Source of the DNA: Occallatibacter sp.
GTDB lineage: Bacteria > Acidobacteriota > Terriglobia > Terriglobales > Acidobacteriaceae
Length of the DNA: 61,210 bases
Direction of reading: 5' to 3'
NCBI GenBank assembly: GCA_031296305.1
Contig: JARLFZ010000011.1
Span: forward strand, 1-61,210
Shown: positions 42,023 through 52,735 of the stretch, piece by piece
Layout of the letters: every line of letters starts with the position of its first letter
How positions within the stretch are numbered: position 1 is the first letter of the stretch
Notes under the pieces: generated by a model
Seen by the model: only the letters and a program-made list of their open reading frames with translations
What the model was told of the DNA's origin: nothing
The model's database searches: none
Made by a program: the position numbers and the translations under genes

Positions 42023-43255
42023 TCACTGGCCGAATACGATCCGATTCCGGCCCAGCTTCTTCGCTTCGTATAACGCCTCATCTGCGACGGCGATTACCTT
42101 CGCCTTCGACCTGTCACCTGGTTTTGCAATCGCCGCACCGATGCTGAATGTGATTCGGAAATTGATCTGCCCTGTGGGAATCGGCTCCGATTCGGTAGAC
42201 GTACGAATGCGTTCCGCGAGTTCGCAGAGCTCTCTTTCGTTGGTAGCAGGCACGACTATCAGGAATTCCTCTCCTCCATACCGGCCGAGGCAGTCGTGAG
42301 CACGCAATTTGCGGCATAGTCGACGAGCTGTTTCCTGCAAAACCAAATCGCCAGCCAAGTGCCCGTGAGCATCGTTGACATTCTTGAAATGGTCGAGATC
42401 GAGCATCAGGATTCCCGTCGATCGGCCATTGCGTTCGGCGCCTTCCAGATCCCGTTGCAGAATCTCGAGAATTCCTCTGCGATTCAAGACCCCGGTAAGT
42501 GCATCTCTGGTTGCCTGGTCGCGGAACTGCTCGCGCGAACTGATTAAGTAGTCGCGGCGGTCGAGCGCGCGCACCGCAACGATGAGGCGCGCTCTCAACT
42601 CCTGTTCGTCAAAAGGTGTGGTCAGGTACTCAGTCGCTCCGGATTCCAGAGATTCGACGACGACCTGACGGCCGGTCGGCCTGCCCATCATGACGATGTG
42701 GGGGGGATGCTCACTGAAACGGTCGCATATCCGCCCGCACAGCTCGATGCCGTTCATACCTGCAAGCGACCTGTTGATGAAAAACAAATCCGGCGGCTGT
42801 TGGAGTTCAACGAAACCGAGCGCTTCGATTCCGTCTGTTGCCACTACAACGTAGAATCCCCATTCACGAAGTAGATGAAGCAGGCGAAGCCGCGCGTCGC
42901 TATCGCCTTCAGCAACCAGAACCCGTCGAAGATCCCCGAATCGATGGCGGCGTTCGCTTGGCGGGCCATCTGCGGAGTTGCTGGGCGATCGCAGGCTGAG
43001 AGCGTGCTTCGGCGGGCCCTGACGTTCCGGCTTTGGCATCCGCACCAGCAGATATCGCGCACCGTCGACTTCCGCGTCAACCAATACCGCCATCGGGGAC
43101 TGATTCTTCCCGTCGTTGGTCCCAGCATTTCGCGCAGACTCATTGGCCATTCCGGCCAAGTCCCGGATTGCTTCAGATATAGGAAGCCGATTAAAGGCAG
43201 CAGGCGGGACCAGTGAGATAGATGCATGAGCAGCAGACATGGCGTTTTCTCCCAA
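42023..43255 (-). CDS. Diguanylate cyclase with degenerate receiver domain
   Basis: A 410-residue protein: N-terminal unknown region (1-105), a receiver-like domain (110-230), and a GGDEF domain (245-410) with the active motif GGEEF at 327-331 and the product-inhibition RxxD (Arg318-Asp321) five residues before it. The receiver lacks the phosphorylatable aspartate: the site reads FFINRSLAGMNG with Asn161, and its acid pair is also altered. So the cyclase domain looks active (makes c-di-GMP) but control by phosphorylation is unlikely. It is 117 bases upstream of the response-regulator gene. Confidence 0.92.
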   Translation of the reverse strand: MGENAMSAAHASISLVPPAAFNRLPISEAIRDLAGMANESARNAGTNDGKNQSPMAVLVDAEVDGARYLLVRMPKPERQGPPKHALSLRSPSNSADGPPSERRHRFGDLRRVLVAEGDSDARLRLLHLLREWGFYVVVATDGIEALGFVELQQPPDLFFINRSLAGMNGIELCGRICDRFSEHPPHIVMMGRPTGRQVVVESLESGATEYLTTPFDEQELRARLIVAVRALDRRDYLISSREQFRDQATRDALTGVLNRRGILEILQRDLEGAERNGRSTGILMLDLDHFKNVNDAHGHLAGDLVLQETARRLCRKLRAHDCLGRYGGEEFLIVVPATNERELCELAERIRTSTESEPIPTGQINFRITFSIGAAIAKPGDRSKAKVIAVADEALYEAKKLGRNRIVFGQ

Positions 43256-43909: not shown

Positions 43910-44260
43910 ATGAAGGCAATCGTCACCGCCGCGGCAACGGGCTTGCAAGTCAAGACCACGTGGCGACCACATCGGGTCGAGGCGAAACACCAAATGTCCC
44001 CAGCGCCAAATCTTCGACCGGACGCGCAACGCCGCACTGGATTGGCCATCTACGCGTCGAATCTGATTCTTTGTTTGAGCCTGTGGATCTCACTACTCGT
44101 CGCACTATGGCTGACAAGAGGCTGGATCGGATTGTTATTCAGCGGGCAACTGTTCTCCATAGGGGCCAAGATCTTTGGAACACTGTCGGAAAGGACTCAG
44201 TATGCTCTCTCCGCAGGGAATGTGCTCGCTCATGAGTTCGAGGTCAGTCGGAATGAATAG
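43910..44260 (+). CDS. Small protein with one membrane segment, unknown
   Basis: A 116-residue protein: polar, basic N-terminal half, then a hydrophobic stretch (about residues 46-85, NLILCLSLWISLLVALWL) and a short polar tail. Its stop overlaps the start of the next gene by eight bases (44253-44260), which supports that it is translated as first member of the sigma-factor operon. The ribosome site is weak. No family recognised. Confidence 0.5.
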   Translation: MKAIVTAAATGLQVKTTWRPHRVEAKHQMSPAPNLRPDAQRRTGLAIYASNLILCLSLWISLLVALWLTRGWIGLLFSGQLFSIGAKIFGTLSERTQYALSAGNVLAHEFEVSRNE

Positions 44261-44468
44261 TCAGCGGCAGCAGACACGATTAAGACGCCACGAACCAGGA
44301 TCGGATTACCGCGTGAGCGTTGAGTACCTCGGAGGCCTCGAAATCGCTGTGAGCGGAATCGTTACAGGAGGGCTCTACAGGTTCACTCCCGTACAATCGG
44401 TGCAGCAGGTCGACCCGAGAGACGCGCTTTACTTGCTGGCAAGCGGACTATTTAGGGTCGCATCATGA
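44253..44468 (+). CDS. 71-residue unknown protein coupled to the sigma-factor gene
   Basis: The product is basic at the start and then beta-rich: DYRVSVEYLGGLEIAVSG, LYRFTPVQ, and VDPRDALYLLASGLFRV. The last segment resembles a short domain (V-D-x-R-D-A-x-x-L-L) seen in small phage head-tail or tail proteins; this is only a resemblance. Its stop overlaps the sigma-factor ATG (ATGA at 44465-44468), and its start overlaps the previous gene, so three genes are tightly coupled. Confidence 0.55.
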   Translation: MNSQRQQTRLRRHEPGSDYRVSVEYLGGLEIAVSGIVTGGLYRFTPVQSVQQVDPRDALYLLASGLFRVAS

Positions 44469-45196
44469 ACTCTGCGCAACCGCGCCGCGCGCATCGCGCC
44501 TCCCCCAGGAAGTTCCGGAGTCGCGCCAAATCTCCTCGACCAATACGCTTTCATTCGCCGACACCGGCTGAGATACTATACCCGTCACTTCCGATGGCGG
44601 GGCGAAATTTGCAATTCTATTCGTTCGATGCGAAATACGTGGAGGATCTTTGCGCTGGGGAACGCCAGACGCAGGAGCATTTTGTTGCCTATTTCACCGC
44701 ACTGCTTAAGATCAAGCTCCGCTCGCGGCTTCAGTCTTTCCATGCGATAGACGATGTATGCCAGGAGACCTTTGCCAGGGTACTTCAGGTTCTGCGCAGG
44801 GATGGCGGTCTGCGCCAGCCTGAAAGTCTCGGGGCGTTCGTAAACAATGTTTGCAATCATGTTCTCTTTGAGTACTACCGTTCCTCGAGCCGTAGCGAGT
44901 CACTCGATGCGGAAGGTGCGCCGGAGCCGGCTGCAACTGGTGCAGATGTCCTCGACATCGTATCTGCGCGGCAAATCAAGGAGAACGTCCTGGTCATCCT
45001 GATGCGCCTTTCAAAGCGGGACCGTTCTTTGCTGAAGGCGGTCTTTCTCGACGAGCGCGATCGCGATGAGGTCTGCCAGGAGTTCGGCGTAGAACGGGAA
45101 TACTTGAGGGTCCTTCTGCATCGCGCCAAGCAGGAATTCAAAGTCGAATACGTGAAACACATTGGCAATCAAGTGTCTTTGAGCGCAGACACCTGA
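44465..45196 (+). CDS. ECF-type RNA polymerase sigma factor
   Basis: A 243-residue sigma factor with a basic extension of about 55 residues in front. Region 2: HFVAYFTALLKIKLRSRLQ, then DDVCQETFARVLQVL. Region 4: LSKRDRSLLKAVFLDERDRD and the helix-turn-helix VCQEFGVEREYLRVLLHRAKQE. It is followed 50 bases later by its likely anti-sigma factor. It probably directs RNA polymerase to the genes of its own operon and others. The promoter motif is unknown. Some basic extension residues could be an artefact of a start placed too early; ATG at 44594 is an alternative. Confidence 0.9.
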   Translation: MNSAQPRRAHRASPRKFRSRAKSPRPIRFHSPTPAEILYPSLPMAGRNLQFYSFDAKYVEDLCAGERQTQEHFVAYFTALLKIKLRSRLQSFHAIDDVCQETFARVLQVLRRDGGLRQPESLGAFVNNVCNHVLFEYYRSSSRSESLDAEGAPEPAATGADVLDIVSARQIKENVLVILMRLSKRDRSLLKAVFLDERDRDEVCQEFGVEREYLRVLLHRAKQEFKVEYVKHIGNQVSLSADT

Positions 45197-45246
45197 ACCG
45201 CTTGCAAGACCTGAGATAGCGACAGTGAATTCAAGGTGAGGAAACG

Positions 45247-45948
45247 ATGAATCATAGCGAAGCAGTGGAGCAAATGACCGCAGAGCGATACCTGCTGAAT
45301 GAGCTCACCCCCGATGTGCGCGATGCCTTCGAAGAGCATGTTTTCGATTGCCCGGAATGCGCCCTCGACCTAAGCGCCGGCTCTCTCTTTGTGCGCGAAG
45401 CCAAAGCTCAACTCCCGGATTTGCCGGCTGCGCCCGCCGGATCCGGCATGGCAAACGCCAGAGGGAAACGGGCTTCATGGTTTTCATGGATGCGTCCGGC
45501 ATTTGCGGTTCCTGCTCTTGCATCTCTGCTCATCGTGGTCGGGTATCAAAACCTGGTCACATTCCCGGCGCTGCGCCAGTCGGCGAATGAGCCTCGTCTT
45601 GCCCCTATCGCCCCCCTGCGCTCTGCAACACGCGGCGCCACGCGGCCCACGTTTACTGCCGACCGAACGCACGGCGTGGCATTGCCGGTTGATCTGGTTA
45701 TCGAGCCGGATAGAACGCCATCAGCCTCCTATTCCTTCGATCTCCGCGGTCCGCAAGGAAAACTCGTCTGGACAGGTAGCCTGCCGGCTGCAGCACCGGG
45801 AGCGGACAGCGACCAGTCGTTTTCCCTTACCATCCCAGGCGGCATGCTCCAGAGCGGTCCTTACTCACTGACGGTTACCAGCGTTACTGCTCAAGGTGGG
45901 CGTTCGCCAATCGAGCAATATAACTTTGATATAGTGATGACCAACTAG
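45247..45948 (+). CDS. Membrane anti-sigma factor with zinc-finger domain
   Basis: A 233-residue protein. Cytoplasmic zinc-binding anti-sigma domain with His31, Cys35 and Cys38 (HVFDCPEC), one transmembrane helix at about 82-101, and a periplasmic beta-rich domain (about 120-233; PSASYSFDLRGPQGKLVW). This is the standard design of anti-sigma factors that hold an ECF sigma factor until the periplasmic side is cut or triggered. A good AAGGTGAGG ribosome site precedes the ATG. The last gene of the operon codes for an exported CHAT protease-like protein. Confidence 0.9.
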   Translation: MNHSEAVEQMTAERYLLNELTPDVRDAFEEHVFDCPECALDLSAGSLFVREAKAQLPDLPAAPAGSGMANARGKRASWFSWMRPAFAVPALASLLIVVGYQNLVTFPALRQSANEPRLAPIAPLRSATRGATRPTFTADRTHGVALPVDLVIEPDRTPSASYSFDLRGPQGKLVWTGSLPAAAPGADSDQSFSLTIPGGMLQSGPYSLTVTSVTAQGGRSPIEQYNFDIVMTN

Positions 45949-46054
45949 CTGATTCCAGGAATTCTGGAATGGGCCCCGAACCATCTCCACCTGAGAACCC
46001 CCTTGCGGTCGAAATGGCGGCAAGAATTCATCGGACATTCGATGAAAAGTCCGC

Positions 46055-46927
46055 ATGCAAAGGAGCATGAGTACGCCCATGTCCAAATTGAACGGCAGAA
46101 CCCACTACTATCACGCCGAAGCCAATATCCTTTCCGGCCATTTGCGGCTTCCGCTCGAGCATCGCATCAAGCCCCAGGCGCATGTGCATCTGCCGAAGGA
46201 CGGGGGCTATTTCTCGCACCGTGCTGAGCACTTTCGCCTCGAGTCGGTTCTTGAGTACCGCTCCGCATATTCGCACGTTGCCGGGTGCATCAATCCGAAG
46301 CCCGGCGGCGGCTGGACCACACTGGTAACAACTGTCATCGAAGGCTTGAATGTAATGGAGGTGGTCACCGCCGATCGCATTGTCGGGCAAACCATCACCG
46401 AGCATCCCGCTGAGGGTTATGTGCCGAGAATCAATTTTCTTGGTACGCGCTTCGAGAACCTGCGCATTGCAGGTTTTCCAGTTGATCTCGATCTTGACTT
46501 GAACTTCCTCGGCCCCAGGCCCGCGAACGACGCGGCCTATACGCACGACTCCGCAGTGATTGGGCGCATCTCCAGCCAAATGGGCCGCATCTCAGAGCAT
46601 CCGAATCTTCCAGCGGCGCTTCACGAACGATACAATCGAGTTTCCGCATCGCTTGGATCGCAGCCGGAGGAAGTGGAATGTTCACTGGTCAATCGTGTGA
46701 ATGGCGCCTATCCCGGCCACTCCTTTGGGCCCGTGATCACGATCCCGGACTTCGGCACGATGGTTCTGGGCAAGATAACCATCAAGCACGAGGACTTCAA
46801 GCCGGAGACGGGCGTGCCGAAGAAGACGACGGTCCGGCTCACCATGATCGATTTCCACTTTGGCTGTGCGATCGAGGGCGACGGGGGTACGGGGGATGGT
46901 TCGACAAATGGCGGAACGGAGCCGTAG
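46055..46927 (+). CDS. Unknown protein between the anti-sigma factor and the CHAT protein
   Basis: A 290-residue protein of mixed alpha/beta make-up without signal peptide or membrane segment. It has many histidines near the start (THYYHAEANILSGHLRLPLEH) and ends with an acidic Gly/Thr-rich tail (EGDGGTGDGSTNGGTEP). The start is uncertain: ATGs at 46055, 46067 and 46079 are possible, and the AAAGGAG at 46059-46065 best fits the third if spacing is long. I do not recognise the family. Its place between the anti-sigma factor and a caspase-like protein makes it a candidate target or partner. Confidence 0.65.
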   Translation: MQRSMSTPMSKLNGRTHYYHAEANILSGHLRLPLEHRIKPQAHVHLPKDGGYFSHRAEHFRLESVLEYRSAYSHVAGCINPKPGGGWTTLVTTVIEGLNVMEVVTADRIVGQTITEHPAEGYVPRINFLGTRFENLRIAGFPVDLDLDLNFLGPRPANDAAYTHDSAVIGRISSQMGRISEHPNLPAALHERYNRVSASLGSQPEEVECSLVNRVNGAYPGHSFGPVITIPDFGTMVLGKITIKHEDFKPETGVPKKTTVRLTMIDFHFGCAIEGDGGTGDGSTNGGTEP

Positions 46928-46944
46928 CGCAAACAACTCCGTGG

Positions 46945-49497
46945 GTGGATCCTCCGCAACGTAAGACCTCGTTCAAACTGCGACGCGGATTCCGCTCTGC
47001 CAAGTTTCTCCTGCTCTTTTTGCTACCGTTAATGCTTCCGCTCAAAGACACACGGCCCGCCGGTGCGCAGGCCGTGTATGACCATGCATGGCGACTGCTT
47101 CAAAGTGGCTATTTGGCGATGAGCCAGCAAGAAGCCGAATCAGCGGCCAAACGATATCAAACCTCCGATCCTGCGTGGGCCGCGCGGTTCACGTTGCTCG
47201 AAGCAGATTCCATGCTTCGCCGCGGCATGTACGAAGACTCTCTCCGCGTTCTTAGTTCCTACCACAGTTCTGCAAAACCCGATGCCGGTACCGTTGAAAA
47301 GTTGGCGATTGAAGCAGTCGCGCTCACGCGTCAACAACAGATTTCTGCAGCCGGACAGCGACTCACCCAGGCTGAAGCCGTCTGCTACAGTGCGGACTTT
47401 GCAACTTGCGGGAACGTACTTGTGGCACGCGCCATTCTCGAAGCGAAACTTGGACAGTCCGTTCAGGCCCGGCAGACCTTTCTTCAGGCTTTGTCCTTCG
47501 CCCGAAGCCATCGAGATCCTTGGCTTGAAGCGACCACAACGCTGAATCTTGGATTTATCGCAATGCAGGTCAATCACTACGATGAGGCGGTTGACTGGTC
47601 AAATTTGGCATATCGGGAGGCCGTTAAGTACGGATACGAAAACTCCATGCAGATCGCCTCCGGCAACCTCGGCTGGTCCTATTACGAACTGGGAGACGAC
47701 GAAAGGGCACTGGAGCAATTTCTTGATGCAGGGAAGGCGGCCGCACGGCTTGGAAATGTCCGTTTTCAACTGAAGTGGCTCACTACCGCTGGCTACGTTT
47801 ATCGTGACTCCGATGATTGGGGCCTGGCCGCCCGTTCGTATCGCCAAGCACTTAATCTCGCGCAACAAATCCATAGCCGCGAGGATATTGTGAACGCGCT
47901 CCAGGATCTTGCCCGGGTTTCGGTGCTCAACGGCAATTTGGATGACGCGGACGCGGCCATTGCGCAACTCCAGTCAATGAATGACGACGCTGCCGTGCAC
48001 CCCAGCGCTACTTTGTTGTTGACGATGGGTATGCTGGCTGCCGCACGAAAGCAGCCGGCGCGAGCCGAAAGCTATTTCCATTCTGTCCAGAACGATTCTT
48101 CGAGCTTGATGACCACAAAGTTGGACGCCGGCTTCGAACTGGCTAAGCTCTTTGAATCGGAAGGTGACATCGCTGCTGCGGACCGAATGTATGGGGCCAC
48201 CCTGTCGCAGTATGAAGCCGCACGAGCACAGCTCAAGAGCGAGGAGTCTCAGCTGCCATTCGGGACCAACGCCGCCGAGATTTACGACTCGTATGTTCAT
48301 TTCCTCGTGAAGCTGGGCAGAAATGAAGCGGCTTTGGCAGTCGCCGATCAAAGCCGTGCGCAAACGCTGGAGAGAGGGCTCGAAGAACCTGGTGCGAGTA
48401 AACGTCTGCGGGCAGCAAATCTCAACCCGCAACAAATTGCTCGAAAAACCAACTCGGCCCTCCTTTTCTATTGGCTCGGAAAGCAGGAATCATATCTATG
48501 GGTCATTACACCCGCAAAGACGCAACTATTTCTCTTGCCACCGCAGCACGAGATCACTGCGAGCGTTGAGCGGTATCGCAAAGCACTCCTGGAAGCTCAG
48601 GACCCCTTGAAGAGCGGTAATGCGGACGGCCAATCGCTTTACAAAGTCCTTCTGTCTCCTGCCGCTGCGTTGCTTCACCCCAACACCCCCGTGATCATCC
48701 TTGCCGATGGAATCCTTAGCCTATTGAATTTTGAAACTCTGCTTGTTCCCGGTGCGGCCCTCGGCACTCCGCCAGATGCAGCTGCGAATGTGAAGATGCA
48801 CTATCTGCTTGGCGATCTCATTGTGTCGTCGGCTCCATCGCTTGCGATGCTGAAGGCCGCAGAACCAATAGGCCGGTCCAACAGGAAGATACTCTTGATT
48901 GGCAATCCCGACTCTCCGGATCAGGATTTCCCGTCCCTTCCATTCTTTGGGTTGGAGATGTCTCGCATCGAAGGACATTTCTCTTCATCGCAGATTTCGA
49001 CACTCGAAGGGCAACAAGCCACACCCGCCGCCTATCTTGCCAGCGACCCACGCGGCTATGCCTACATTCATTTTGTATCCCACGCGGTCGCCAGCCTCAC
49101 CAGCCCGTTGGATTCGGCAATCATTCTTTCAAATCCCGCGGGGCGCGAAGATTCCTATAAGCTCTATGCGCGGGAGATCATCCAGCGTCCGATCCATGCA
49201 CAACTGGTTACGATCTCTGCTTGCTACGGCAGCGGGACGCGCACCTATGCAGGAGAGGGACTGGTTGGCCTGTCGTGGGCTTTTTTGAATGCCGGTGCAG
49301 AACAGGTTATCGGTGCGCTTTGGGAAGTGAGCGATGATTCCACGCCGCGATTGATGGACACACTCTACCAAGGCCTTACCGCCGGCGATTCACCGGCCGT
49401 GGCATTGCGTAATGCCAAGCTCTCGCTGCTTCATTCACAGAGCAGATTCAGTGCCCCGTTCTATTGGGCGCCTTTTCAGATCTACAGCCGACGATAA
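46945..49497 (+). CDS. Exported TPR-CHAT protein (caspase-like)
   Basis: An 850-residue protein. The GTG at 46945 gives a good signal peptide (basic n-region RKTSFKLRRGFRSAK, hydrophobic FLLLFLLPLMLPL, cleavage near PAGAQA). Residues about 50-470 hold tetratricopeptide-like helix pairs (for example LAARSYRQALNLAQQIHSRE). The C-terminal CHAT domain (about 560-850) has the caspase-type dyad His713 (HFVSHA) and Cys760 (ISACYGSG), then GEGLVGLSWAFLNAGAEQV and GALWEVSD. CHAT proteins are peptidases related to separase and caspases. The signal peptide puts it on the far side of the inner membrane, where the anti-sigma factor has its beta-rich domain. Confidence 0.92.
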   Translation: MDPPQRKTSFKLRRGFRSAKFLLLFLLPLMLPLKDTRPAGAQAVYDHAWRLLQSGYLAMSQQEAESAAKRYQTSDPAWAARFTLLEADSMLRRGMYEDSLRVLSSYHSSAKPDAGTVEKLAIEAVALTRQQQISAAGQRLTQAEAVCYSADFATCGNVLVARAILEAKLGQSVQARQTFLQALSFARSHRDPWLEATTTLNLGFIAMQVNHYDEAVDWSNLAYREAVKYGYENSMQIASGNLGWSYYELGDDERALEQFLDAGKAAARLGNVRFQLKWLTTAGYVYRDSDDWGLAARSYRQALNLAQQIHSREDIVNALQDLARVSVLNGNLDDADAAIAQLQSMNDDAAVHPSATLLLTMGMLAAARKQPARAESYFHSVQNDSSSLMTTKLDAGFELAKLFESEGDIAAADRMYGATLSQYEAARAQLKSEESQLPFGTNAAEIYDSYVHFLVKLGRNEAALAVADQSRAQTLERGLEEPGASKRLRAANLNPQQIARKTNSALLFYWLGKQESYLWVITPAKTQLFLLPPQHEITASVERYRKALLEAQDPLKSGNADGQSLYKVLLSPAAALLHPNTPVIILADGILSLLNFETLLVPGAALGTPPDAAANVKMHYLLGDLIVSSAPSLAMLKAAEPIGRSNRKILLIGNPDSPDQDFPSLPFFGLEMSRIEGHFSSSQISTLEGQQATPAAYLASDPRGYAYIHFVSHAVASLTSPLDSAIILSNPAGREDSYKLYAREIIQRPIHAQLVTISACYGSGTRTYAGEGLVGLSWAFLNAGAEQVIGALWEVSDDSTPRLMDTLYQGLTAGDSPAVALRNAKLSLLHSQSRFSAPFYWAPFQIYSRR

Positions 49498-49762: not shown

Positions 49763-52735
49763 CTAATCGGGAAAATGAAGGCTCTCCGGCGGTCCAAGAT
49801 AACTCGGCCGCAGCGCGCCGTGACTCACGATTACGCGTTCGAGAACCAAGCCCGGATCGACCGCCCAAATCTTTAGCGTGTGATATCCCGGCTTTGCAAT
49901 AGTCAGCGGAACCGTGACGCGGCGTGCCCCATCGCTCACTGCTTGCTCCCAGTCCTTCTGCGTGTTGTGCTCGAGCTCGTCGACGATCGTGCGTGGTCCA
50001 TCGTCCACTGAGACGGCAAACCGCAGTCCACGTCCCGGAACGAAATTCAGAGTCGGCGCCAGAATCGCCTGCATCTCGAATTCTCCCGTATCGTACAAAT
50101 AGATCTTGTACGCAAGCGCCGCGTTCGACTCCGTATTGCTCTCGGCTGTAACTGGAAATACTGTCATCGCCGAGCGCGTCGCGCCGTAGCCGGGGAGTTC
50201 TTCCCAATGCGTTTCGCCATCGGCTGAACGCCCTGCGGTATCCGCCGCTTCTATCGCCACGTATCCGTCGCTCTCAATAAATCCATGCGCGTCCGCCCGC
50301 ATTATTGGCAGCCTCAGCGCTCGCAGAGCATAATTCAACGGGCGCCCTTCGCCCGAACTCACCGTCGCTGTCCCTTCCGCGCTGTCATTGCCTGCAGGCA
50401 CCTTGCTCCAATCCACGCGAAGCACGACCGTCTCTTCCGTGGGGCCAACCGTTCCTGCACTCTCTGAAGGCACGATCCACGGCACCGTCGTCTGCACCGT
50501 GAACTTTACCGGCGTCCCGCCGCGATCAAACAGCCTCAGGGTCCGCGTTTCATCGGAAACAGAATCGATCGTCCCCAGCGAAAGCGCAAACCGTCCTCCC
50601 GCCCGCTCCAGTGTCGTGGCTCCCGCGTCCACGCCCAGCGATCCCGCCTCCGGAACCTGAATCCAGGTCACGGCAGGCATGGCGTTCGCCGGCGGATCGT
50701 TCCATGCCGTATAGCCGATGTGCGTCTGGTCCATCATGTGGTCCCACTTGCCGTTCTCAAGCTGATGGTTGTACTCATCGCGCAGCGTCGCATCCCGCGC
50801 AAACATCGCGCGCGCCGCGTCGGCCTCCAGATTCGCCCGCGGATTCCCCGCGCGCGCGTCCGCCGCATTGCGCGCCGCCGCAATATACATCTCCGTTAAA
50901 TTCGCGCACGCATCCACCGGATATTGAATCAGTTCAAAGTACGAAGCACGCTGGTCTTCCGGTAATTTCGCGGCCAGCTTATCCACGCGTTCTTCGAGCG
51001 TCCGCCATTCCGCCTCCACGCGGTCCGCTTCGTGATAGTTCGTCAGGCTGAACGTCGAGGCATCGATAAGTTCCGGTTTTCTGCGTCCGTTATACCGCGT
51101 GTACTCTTCCATCGCTGCCGCAATCTCACTCGCATGTTCTGGCCCGAACTCACGCGCCGCCCATAGCTTCGTGAACTCATCGAGATGGTCGATACCTGAG
51201 CGGTCGGGGTCCCAGCGCTCGGGGGTCCGCGCATAGCTCAGGAAAAACTCCGTGGGGAATTCCATCGGCTTTCCATCGCCGACATTCACCACCCACAGCC
51301 GGTCCGCTCCGTACCTGAGCGCCAGGTTCATCTGTTCCTGGATTTTTGGAATTGGGTTCGTGTTCAGCCACTTGTACGAGCGCGGTCCGCCAACATAATC
51401 GAAGTGATAGTAGATGCCGGCTCCGCCCGCGCGCTTGCGTTCTTCCGCCGTGGGCAGCCGCCGCAAATCGCCCCAGTTGTCGTCGGACCACAGCAGCGTC
51501 ACATCGTCGGGCACGCGCATGCCGCTTTCGTAGTAGCCCTGCACTTCCTTGTAAAGCGCCCACACCTGGGGAACCTGGGCCAGGTCGGGATTCACCGTCT
51601 GCTTCAAAATCTCCCTTTGATCGGCGACAATCCGCTCCAGCAATTCGGTATTCGCGGTGGCCGACATGGGCGTATCGCCCTCGCCGCGCATCCCCAGCGT
51701 CACCACCTCTTCGTAATTTTTGTCCCGCTCCATCCCCTCGCGCCAGAACTTGTCGATTTCCTGTTGGTTGGTCGCGTAGTCCCACGCCCCATGATGCCCC
51801 CACACCCATTCCCTCTCCGCGCGCATCATCGGCTCTTCATGCGAAGTCCCCATCACAATTCCATATTCATCGGCCAGCTTCGCGTTCAACGGATCGTCCG
51901 TGGCAAATGCGTTGTTCCACATGGCTGGCCAAAGAAAGTTTGCCTTCAGTCGCAAAAGCAGCTCAAATACCTTCGTATAAAACTCGTGATTCATGCCTCC
52001 GAACTTCTCTTTCGTCCATCCCGAAAGAGCCGGAGCCTCATCGTTGAAGAAGATCCCGCGATATTTCACCGCCGGCACCGCCTGCACGTAGCGCCCCGTC
52101 TCCACATAGAGCGCGCTGGCATGAGGCACCCTGACATCGGCCCACCAGTACCAGGGCGAGACCCCAATCTGCTCCGACAGATCGTAAATCCCATAGATGG
52201 TGCCGCGTTTGTCCGCACCCGCAATCACCAGCGCCCGCCGCACTCCCGGCATCGGGCGCTCCACCACCGTCGTCACCGCCGACTCCCACTTGCCCGCGAT
52301 CCCGCTCACATCCAGCTTGTGCCGGCGCACCAGCGCATCGATCAGCGGACTCCTCCCGATGGTTCCGATTAGTACGGCATCGATTCCGGCCGCGGGCCTG
52401 CCCTTTATCAGAGGCGCATCGTGTCCCGTAACCCTGCCAATATCCCGGCTCAGATCGCCGGCCGCCCGTACCACCCCGGGCCAATCCTCGTCGCTCACCA
52501 CGAGCGGCGCTGCTTCGCCGTTTGCCGCCAGCACAAAAGCTCCAGGCGACGACGTCGTGCTGACGTACTTTGGCCCTCCCAGGGCGTTGCCCGCTGCAGG
52601 CCATAGGGTGATCACGAAGAGGACAAGAATAGCGGCTCGGACGGTCCTGCCACGCGCAATGTTTTTTCTCGAAGCGCGACCCTGAACCCACGCGGGCTTA
52701 ACCGACAACAAGAAAGCGAATCGTTCTGTACTCAT
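49763..52735 (-). CDS. GH115-family glycoside hydrolase (xylan alpha-1,2-glucuronidase)
   Basis: A 990-residue exported enzyme expected to remove (methyl)glucuronic acid side chains from xylan. Signal region at about 33-52 (AAILVLFVITLWPAAGNALG). The family words run in order: DKRGTIYGIYDLSEQIGVSPWYWWADV, RGIFFNDEAPALSGW, LLLRLKANFLWPAMWNNAF, GIVMGTSHEEPMMRAE, LGMRGEGDTPMS, LLWSDDNWGDLRRLP and YYHFDYVGGPRSYKWLN, where the repeated Glu and Asp residues form the active site. The C-terminal 250 residues are a beta-sandwich accessory domain. The GGGGGA ribosome site precedes the ATG. It suggests growth on plant hemicellulose. Confidence 0.95.
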   Translation of the reverse strand: MSTERFAFLLSVKPAWVQGRASRKNIARGRTVRAAILVLFVITLWPAAGNALGGPKYVSTTSSPGAFVLAANGEAAPLVVSDEDWPGVVRAAGDLSRDIGRVTGHDAPLIKGRPAAGIDAVLIGTIGRSPLIDALVRRHKLDVSGIAGKWESAVTTVVERPMPGVRRALVIAGADKRGTIYGIYDLSEQIGVSPWYWWADVRVPHASALYVETGRYVQAVPAVKYRGIFFNDEAPALSGWTKEKFGGMNHEFYTKVFELLLRLKANFLWPAMWNNAFATDDPLNAKLADEYGIVMGTSHEEPMMRAEREWVWGHHGAWDYATNQQEIDKFWREGMERDKNYEEVVTLGMRGEGDTPMSATANTELLERIVADQREILKQTVNPDLAQVPQVWALYKEVQGYYESGMRVPDDVTLLWSDDNWGDLRRLPTAEERKRAGGAGIYYHFDYVGGPRSYKWLNTNPIPKIQEQMNLALRYGADRLWVVNVGDGKPMEFPTEFFLSYARTPERWDPDRSGIDHLDEFTKLWAAREFGPEHASEIAAAMEEYTRYNGRRKPELIDASTFSLTNYHEADRVEAEWRTLEERVDKLAAKLPEDQRASYFELIQYPVDACANLTEMYIAAARNAADARAGNPRANLEADAARAMFARDATLRDEYNHQLENGKWDHMMDQTHIGYTAWNDPPANAMPAVTWIQVPEAGSLGVDAGATTLERAGGRFALSLGTIDSVSDETRTLRLFDRGGTPVKFTVQTTVPWIVPSESAGTVGPTEETVVLRVDWSKVPAGNDSAEGTATVSSGEGRPLNYALRALRLPIMRADAHGFIESDGYVAIEAADTAGRSADGETHWEELPGYGATRSAMTVFPVTAESNTESNAALAYKIYLYDTGEFEMQAILAPTLNFVPGRGLRFAVSVDDGPRTIVDELEHNTQKDWEQAVSDGARRVTVPLTIAKPGYHTLKIWAVDPGLVLERVIVSHGALRPSYLGPPESLHFPD

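What the first reader, a model, noticed from the sequence alone, without database searches (positions are those of the whole stretch)
43910..49497. Sigma factor, membrane anti-sigma factor and exported caspase-like TPR-CHAT protein in one operon
Seen: an ECF sigma factor, a zinc-finger anti-sigma factor with one TM helix and a beta-rich outer domain, an unknown protein and a signal-peptide TPR-CHAT protein with His713/Cys760, all in the same direction with short gaps. Known: CHAT domains are caspase/separase-like peptidases; membrane anti-sigma factors are often released by proteolysis on the outer side; type III-E CRISPR systems also pair a TPR-CHAT protease with an ECF sigma factor. Inference: the exported CHAT protein may cut the outer domain of the anti-sigma factor and start a regulated cascade. 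No CRISPR part is present, so this would be a distinct envelope-sensing form.
Basis: partly seen in the sequence, partly recalled or inferred. Interest (0 to 1): 0.85.

Follow-up and report, generated by a model that had tools for sequence, protein, structure and literature searches.

The report
Envelope caspase-like protease and sigma-factor cassette
Soil Acidobacteria carry a conserved four-gene cassette in which an exported caspase-like protease sits beside a gene-switch protein and its membrane-bound inhibitor, and probably cuts the inhibitor to turn the switch on; this has not been tested at the bench.

Summary
In detail: an ECF sigma factor, a zf-HC2 single-pass anti-sigma factor (ANTI), a 290-residue protein (P290) and a TPR-CHAT protein with an intact His/Cys dyad. 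In 151 class genomes, strong ANTI matches and this CHAT subfamily fall in the same 31 genomes, side by side; P290 is in 30 of them. Units also occur outside the class. A hydrophobic segment precedes the TPR part of CHAT in 182 of 189 loci, lipobox-like in 101. Foldseek's best solved match is DdvA, a transmembrane anti-sigma factor that itself carries TPR-CHAT; then Csx29 and separase. So CHAT control of sigma factors is a known kind, and this split cassette is a new variant.

New here: (1) CHAT most likely starts 250 nt inside P290 in another frame, which relatives keep free of stops. (2) ANTI has a conserved linker Arg129, and CHAT a Glu at the clan-CD S1 position. One clade has aromatics at 129 and Gln in CHAT (15 of 15 scorable); that is one evolutionary event, so only suggestive.

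Best model: CHAT is the site-1 protease of ANTI. P290's role is open. Nothing here shows cleavage.

The parts
44577..44582 (+). TATACC, candidate -10 element of the cassette (weak)
   Evidence: TGnTA(T/C/A)(A/C)(C/A)(T/C) within 70 nt upstream of the sigma start in 59 of 77 rows, 57 of them 28-34 nt away; 1.4 expected from shuffles. The window's own copy has TA for TG and does not match this pattern
44609..45196 (+). ECF sigma factor, 195 aa, TTG start
   Evidence: TIGR02937 47.5 bits against 42.9; start codon comparison
45247..45948 (+). anti-sigma factor ANTI, 233 aa: zf-HC2 domain, one TM helix (about residues 84-100), conserved linker, beta-rich outer domain (Ig-like by my reading, not modelled)
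   Evidence: PF13490 26.0 bits against 22.2; HxxxCxxC in 76 of 78; alignment A2; zinc-finger match to the solved anti-sigma chain 3hug_B, E 0.0017 (the name RslA is recalled)
45631..45633 (+). Arg129 of ANTI, candidate P1 residue of the cut
   Evidence: R in 186 of 212 loci, fifth most conserved of the outer positions ranked; W/Y/F in one clade
46055..46927 (+). P290, no signal peptide; distant relative of choice-of-anchor P proteins
   Evidence: NF040603 in 25 of 29 relatives at E<=1, best 3.3e-11; N-terminal hydrophobic stretch over the threshold in 0 of 80, highest 1.70 against 1.8; AF2 pLDDT 91.5
46666..46670 (+). GGAGG, Shine-Dalgarno-like, 7 nt before ATG 46678
   Evidence: read from sequence; GGAG or GGAGG at a like place in most loci of the window's clade, not in distant overlap loci
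46678..49497 (+). TPR-CHAT protease, 939 aa from ATG 46678
   Evidence: PF12770 166.3 bits against 24, TPR_12 39.5 bits against 30.1; start codon analysis
46678..46927 (+). two-frame region: end of P290 and start of CHAT
   Evidence: CHAT-frame stops in the last 80 P290 codons: 3 of 57 overlap loci, 53.3 expected
47005..47043 (+). hydrophobic segment FLLLFLLPLMLPL (export signal or membrane anchor), followed by AQA at 47065-47073
   Evidence: hydrophobic in 182 of 189 loci, lipobox-like in 101 of 189
48955..48957 (+). Glu677 (counted from codon 46927), candidate S1-pocket residue on the helix after strand 1 of the caspase-like fold
49081..49083 (+). catalytic His
   Evidence: H in 202 of 203 loci with a residue there; the other, L150, is cut by a contig end
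49222..49224 (+). catalytic Cys
   Evidence: C in 201 of 203 loci with a residue there; the others, L150 and L223, are cut by contig ends

Best explanation
The cassette is an envelope signalling unit. At rest the zinc-finger part of ANTI holds the ECF sigma factor at the inner membrane (inferred from the family). The CHAT protease faces the periplasm, tethered as a lipoprotein or by its hydrophobic segment, next to the outer part of ANTI (topology from sequence). A signal, perhaps bound by the TPR array, activates it (inferred). It then cuts ANTI in the linker between TM helix and outer domain, most likely after Arg129 (inferred). A site-2 protease and cytoplasmic proteases finish ANTI and free sigma (by analogy with RseA). 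P290 is probably cytoplasmic and made in step with CHAT because their genes overlap (inferred); what it does is not known.
For: ANTI (69 bits or more) and the CHAT subfamily (460 bits or more) occur in the same 31 of 151 class genomes and neighbour each other by coordinates. Both reach the periplasm by sequence. The dyad is conserved. Foldseek's best solved match is DdvA, an anti-sigma factor that contains TPR-CHAT (E 3.5e-16). Csx29 TPR-CHAT cuts the sigma inhibitor Csx30 (PMC10028731, passages). Arg129 is conserved in the linker, and separase, paracaspase and gingipain R of the same clan take Arg at P1 (PMC4357240, passages). Glu677 lies on the helix after strand 1, where MALT1 Asp365 and TbMCA2 Asp95 lie. 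Aromatics at 129 go with Gln at 677 in 15 of 15 scorable loci. Three M50 matches in the genome, but M50 also rings in all 14 control genomes, so this says little.
Against: The 129/677 change is one clade (one change on the tree, support 99). Ten loci have H, A, L or G at 129 with Glu at 677, and 11 could not be scored. Another CHAT column separates that clade as cleanly (807, P/A/S/L to E/D) and several nearly so. Csx29, the nearest characterised TPR-CHAT protease, cuts Csx30 near residues 427-429 with no single essential substrate residue in an alanine scan (PMC10028731), so Arg at P1 is not a rule for this subfamily. Glu677 may be general in CHAT domains and Arg129 may be structural; neither was tested. 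VIA-align ranks Csx29 first and does not show DdvA among its 50 rows. Not every unit is whole: L080 and L042 (the same contig, counted twice) have P290 and CHAT without SIG and ANTI, L114 lacks CHAT, L170 and L221 show no ANTI in the stretch fetched, and L155, L158 and L160 show no sigma gene there. P290 is unexplained. No cleavage was shown.
Confidence: 0.5

Rival explanations
1. CHAT is a sensor or scaffold that holds or masks the outer domain of ANTI, as TPR-CHAT may do inside DdvA; another protease makes the first cut.
For: In DdvA the TPR-CHAT part belongs to the anti-sigma factor itself (entry titles only). TPR arrays bind partners (general knowledge).
Against: The dyad is conserved across the loci examined (202 of 203 and 201 of 203), which a pure scaffold does not need.
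Confidence: 0.2
2. CHAT and P290 are outputs of the sigma factor: an envelope protease and a partner that act on other targets, with ANTI controlled by something else.
For: There is a gap between ANTI and P290 (106 nt in the window) that could hold a promoter, and one contig has P290 and CHAT without SIG and ANTI (L080/L042).
Against: No shared two-box motif stood out upstream of P290 (best pair in 8 of 56 sequences and close to the start codon). At the thresholds used, ANTI and this CHAT subfamily were not found apart in the 151 class genomes.
Confidence: 0.2
3. The CHAT-frame opening through P290 reflects a programmed -1 frameshift that makes a P290-TM-CHAT fusion, not an internal start.
For: CHAT is in the -1 frame in 61 of 78 loci, and some have no ATG, GTG or TTG in the last 75 codons before the mature part.
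Against: An ATG (46 of 57) or GTG (5 of 57) sits at the start of the open stretch; in 12 of 57 loci a -1 stop lies directly before it. By eye no common slippery heptamer was seen (no systematic scan).
Confidence: 0.05

Closest known systems
DdvS/DdvA of Myxococcus xanthus (PDB 8rot, 8rw5)
   Same: ECF sigma factor controlled by its anti-sigma factor DdvA (PMC4374960, passages); transmembrane anti-sigma chain named as a CHAT domain protein, TPR-CHAT fold match
   Different: There the anti-sigma factor and TPR-CHAT are one chain (from entry titles); here they are separate genes, with P290 and a two-frame overlap. The DdvA structure paper was not found in the library
Craspase, type III-E CRISPR (Cas7-11, Csx29, Csx30, CASP-sigma)
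   Different: There it is RNA-triggered; here CHAT has export signals and the inhibitor is a membrane zf-HC2 protein. The Csx29 model gives 12.1 bits against 300
RseA/DegS/RseP regulated intramembrane proteolysis
   Same: Single-pass anti-sigma factor with an outer domain and a protease on the outer side (DegS then RseP: PMC8844934, passages)
   Different: DegS is a serine protease with a PDZ domain (PDZ, serine recalled); here a clan CD cysteine protease encoded in the same unit
ECF54 group with CHAT proteins in the genetic context
   Same: CHAT protein near an ECF factor, proteolytic control proposed (PMC8999054, passage)
   Different: ECF54 is listed there among factors without an anti-sigma factor; this unit has one

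Membership tests
CHAT domain (PF12770) | profile match over curated cut-off | tested here: met
   166.3 bits against 24
Clan CD cysteine peptidase, active form | His/Cys dyad at the family positions | tested here: met
   His 202 of 203, Cys 201 of 203 loci with a residue there
Craspase (type III-E) | Csx29 family model | tested here: not met
   NF041237 12.1 bits, cut-off 300
Craspase (type III-E) | Cas7-11 and CRISPR array nearby | not tested
DdvA type | anti-sigma domain and TPR-CHAT in one chain | tested here: not met
   separate ORFs in the window and in the loci examined
DdvA type | TPR-CHAT fold resemblance | tested here: met
   Foldseek E 3.5e-16, TM 0.49/0.46, rmsd 10.5; not among the 50 VIA rows
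zf-HC2 membrane anti-sigma factor | zinc-binding motif, TM helix, outer domain | tested here: met
   PF13490 over cut-off, motif in 76 of 78; TM and outer domain read from alignment A2
Regulated intramembrane proteolysis pathway | site-1 cut of the anti-sigma factor | not testable with these tools
   needs protein experiments
Regulated intramembrane proteolysis pathway | M50 site-2 protease in the genome | tested here: met
   three matches over cut-off in G000; also in 14 of 14 control genomes, so not distinctive
choice-of-anchor P (NF040603) | score over curated cut-off | tested here: not met
   window P290 12.4 bits, cut-off 27; 15 of 29 members of A4 at E<=0.001
choice-of-anchor P (NF040603) | N-terminal export signal (recalled for the family) | tested here: not met
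   hydrophobic N-terminus over the threshold in 0 of 80
ECF54 | no cognate anti-sigma factor | tested here: not met
   ANTI is the neighbour

The most novel reading that the evidence does not exclude
A separase-like protease of the cell envelope clips its partner anti-sigma factor after one conserved linker Arg. One lineage has retuned the pair from Arg to aromatic P1 by changing the S1 acidic residue to Gln, so enzyme and substrate co-evolved. The enzyme's gene is read in part from the same 250 nt as its partner P290, which ties their dosage together. The cassette would be an outer-side counterpart of Craspase, spread through Acidobacteriota.
Probability: 0.3. Interest if true: 0.85.

Novelty: new variant of a known kind. 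Interest (0 to 1): 0.68.

Why it matters
The protease that makes the first cut in an envelope anti-sigma factor is often not known, and bacterial CHAT proteases with known substrates are few (both from general knowledge). This cassette names a protease, a substrate, a candidate scissile residue and a candidate specificity residue, all testable with point mutants. It also suggests that TPR-CHAT control of sigma factors exists on both sides of the membrane (Csx29 inside; this unit and DdvA outside). A 250-nt same-strand gene overlap kept open by selection is unusual in bacteria (recalled).

Tried and rejected
Frameshift fusion of P290 and CHAT: my first idea. Dropped because a start codon, and in some loci a stop directly before it, marks an internal start. 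That the two-frame leader is under strong amino-acid selection: not supported; identity at fourfold third positions in the overlap (0.42, 0.35) is like the rest of P290 (0.38, 0.39).

P290 C-terminal NG motif as a cleavage or sorting tag: NG within 10 residues of the end in 69 of 80 loci, with related endings in distant loci, but it may only be the end of the last strand. Not pursued.

Second independent 129/677 change: L131 has Gln at 677, but its ANTI lies beyond the contig end, and its genome gave only weak ANTI matches (best E 0.02).

What was left out of counts. One search kept the best 80 of 84 relatives. One search analysed the window and 74 loci; L078, L095, L118 and L132 (broken or repeated P290) and L096 and L114 (no CHAT) were dropped. 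The loci include species already in the first set, so that repeat is not fully independent. The 212 loci include species held in two collections; of the 201 scorable, 162 remain after clustering at 98.5%. In some searches the tool scored only the best candidates per genome (19, 6 and 2), and the bit thresholds for 'ANTI' and 'this CHAT' are mine.
Full report
What is there. The window is contig C21 of a 4.1 Mb assembly. The 80 loci kept from the genome-contig scan bear acidobacterial names such as Terracidiphilus, Granulicella, Edaphobacter and Occallatibacter; Terracidiphilus gabretensis is filed under Acidobacteriaceae as Occallatibacter. On the + strand lie an ECF sigma gene (44609-45196), a zf-HC2 anti-sigma gene (ANTI, 45247-45948), P290 (46055-46927) and a TPR-CHAT gene (46678-49497).

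Conservation. The P290 protein found relatives in 35 of 99 near genomes, 33 of them among the 59 genomes of the window's own genus, so the unit is patchy. In the loci picked by P290, tblastn shows the order sigma-ANTI-P290-CHAT in most; one (L042) has only P290 and CHAT. In the 80 named loci, sigma was found in 76, ANTI in 78, P290 in 80 and CHAT in 78, all four in 74. These loci were chosen through P290, so P290 is not tested there. The class search is free of that choice. In 151 genomes searched separately for each protein, this CHAT subfamily (460 bits or more) and ANTI (69 bits or more) occur in the same 31 genomes, neighbouring by coordinates, and P290 in 30 of them. The remaining one, G156, has a weak P290 match in place (19 bits). 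The tool scored at most 19 ANTI and 6 CHAT candidates per genome. In 399 class genomes the CHAT subfamily reaches E 1e-100 in 112. Of 297 genomes drawn from the phylum, five outside the class have P290 matches; six contigs from these show all four genes four times, and two are cut by contig ends (L149-L154). L155 has the order P290-CHAT-ANTI, and L155, L158 and L160 show no sigma gene in the stretch fetched. Of 100 further stretches fetched by CHAT, 93 show ANTI, 94 P290 and 88 sigma; five of the seven without ANTI are at contig ends, L170 and L221 are not.

Where the proteins go. CHAT has a hydrophobic stretch before or at the start of the TPR part in 182 of 189 loci, and 101 have a lipobox-like end. 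In the distant loci a lipobox-like end is the rule; in the window's clade the stretch often ends in AQ(A/S) or like. ANTI has zinc ligands, one TM helix, a conserved linker and an outer domain. P290 has no N-terminal stretch over the hydrophobicity threshold in 80 of 80 loci, so it is probably cytoplasmic.

The start of CHAT. In 57 loci with close spacing (window included), the CHAT frame stays open through the last codons of P290. CHAT-frame stops occur in 0, 2 and 3 of 57 loci over the last 40, 60 and 80 codons, against 40.9, 50.4 and 53.3 expected from synonymous shuffling. The other overlapping frame shows no such loss (54, 55 and 55 of 57; 52.3, 54.6 and 55.8 expected). In 18 loci where CHAT is separate the loss is smaller: 7, 12 and 13 of 18, against 14.1, 16.6 and 17.3. 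A second set, partly the same species, gives 6, 9 and 18 of 71 against 49.8, 59.0 and 66.7, and no loss in 23 separate loci (20 against 21.5 at 80 codons). At the codon pair that ends in the conserved Cys209 of P290, 46 of 57 overlap loci read ATG and 5 GTG in the CHAT frame; separate loci read ATG in 7 and GTG in 4 of 18. Cys itself gives the TG, so the first letter is the informative one. Where the residue before Cys is Leu, the codon is CTA in 7 of 7 overlap loci, though CTA is 44 of 1427 Leu codons there; these loci are related, so this is not seven independent cases. In the window GGAGG lies 7 nt before ATG 46678. So CHAT most likely starts there. The leader itself is not conserved beyond its open frame.

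The candidate cut. Between TM and outer domain, ANTI residue 129 is Arg in 186 of 212 loci, the fifth most conserved outer position. Clan CD enzymes set P1 choice with residues on alpha-1 (L1), L4 and L5 (PMC4357240, passages), and MALT1 Asp365 lies on alpha-1 after strand 1 (PMC4626109, passages). In the CHAT model Glu677 (model residue 629) lies in helix 626-634 after strand 607-613; its distance to the dyad could not be measured, as no coordinates are given out. Of 212 loci, 176 have Arg and Glu, 15 have W, Y or F with Gln, 10 have H, A, L or G with Glu, and 11 could not be scored. The aromatic/Gln loci are one clade (support 99), so this is one joint change. Column 807 marks that clade as cleanly and others nearly so. 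Against Arg as a rule, Csx29 cuts Csx30 near residues 427-429 with no single essential residue (PMC10028731). I treat the 129/677 link as a lead, not proof.

Mechanism and verdict. The best reading is a site-1 protease packaged with its anti-sigma substrate. Shown here: gene linkage, topology by sequence, an intact active site and fold kinship. Inferred: binding, cutting at Arg129, release of sigma, and the roles of TPR and P290. The kind (TPR-CHAT acting on sigma control) is known from Craspase and, by fold and entry title, DdvA. The split, exported, four-gene form with a two-frame overlap was not met in the papers searched, which do not cover most subscription journals.

Noticed in passing
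46678-46927: 250-nt same-strand overlap of P290 and CHAT in different frames, kept free of stops in overlap-type relatives.
   Followed up: yes
44560-44611: Sigma gene starts at TTG in 70 of 77 rows, with an extended -10-like element upstream in 59 of 77.
   Followed up: partly
46907-46927: P290 ends in NGGTEP; NG near the C-terminus recurs in 69 of 80 loci, and several distant members end in NGxxYP or like.
   Followed up: partly
L068 (G000:C82): A second CHAT protein (1031-codon open frame) in the same genome, only about 21-26% identical to the cassette's CHAT in matched parts.
   Followed up: no
L043 and L078 (same contig), L095, L118: Copies with frame breaks in ANTI, P290 or CHAT; decay or assembly errors cannot be told apart.
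   Followed up: no
L132:7929-10030: P290 matches in three successive ORFs before CHAT, as if P290 had been duplicated.
   Followed up: no
49763-52735 (-): GH115 glycoside hydrolase gene converging on the cassette.
   Followed up: no
42023-43255 (-): Response regulator fused to a GGDEF domain upstream of the cassette.
   Followed up: no
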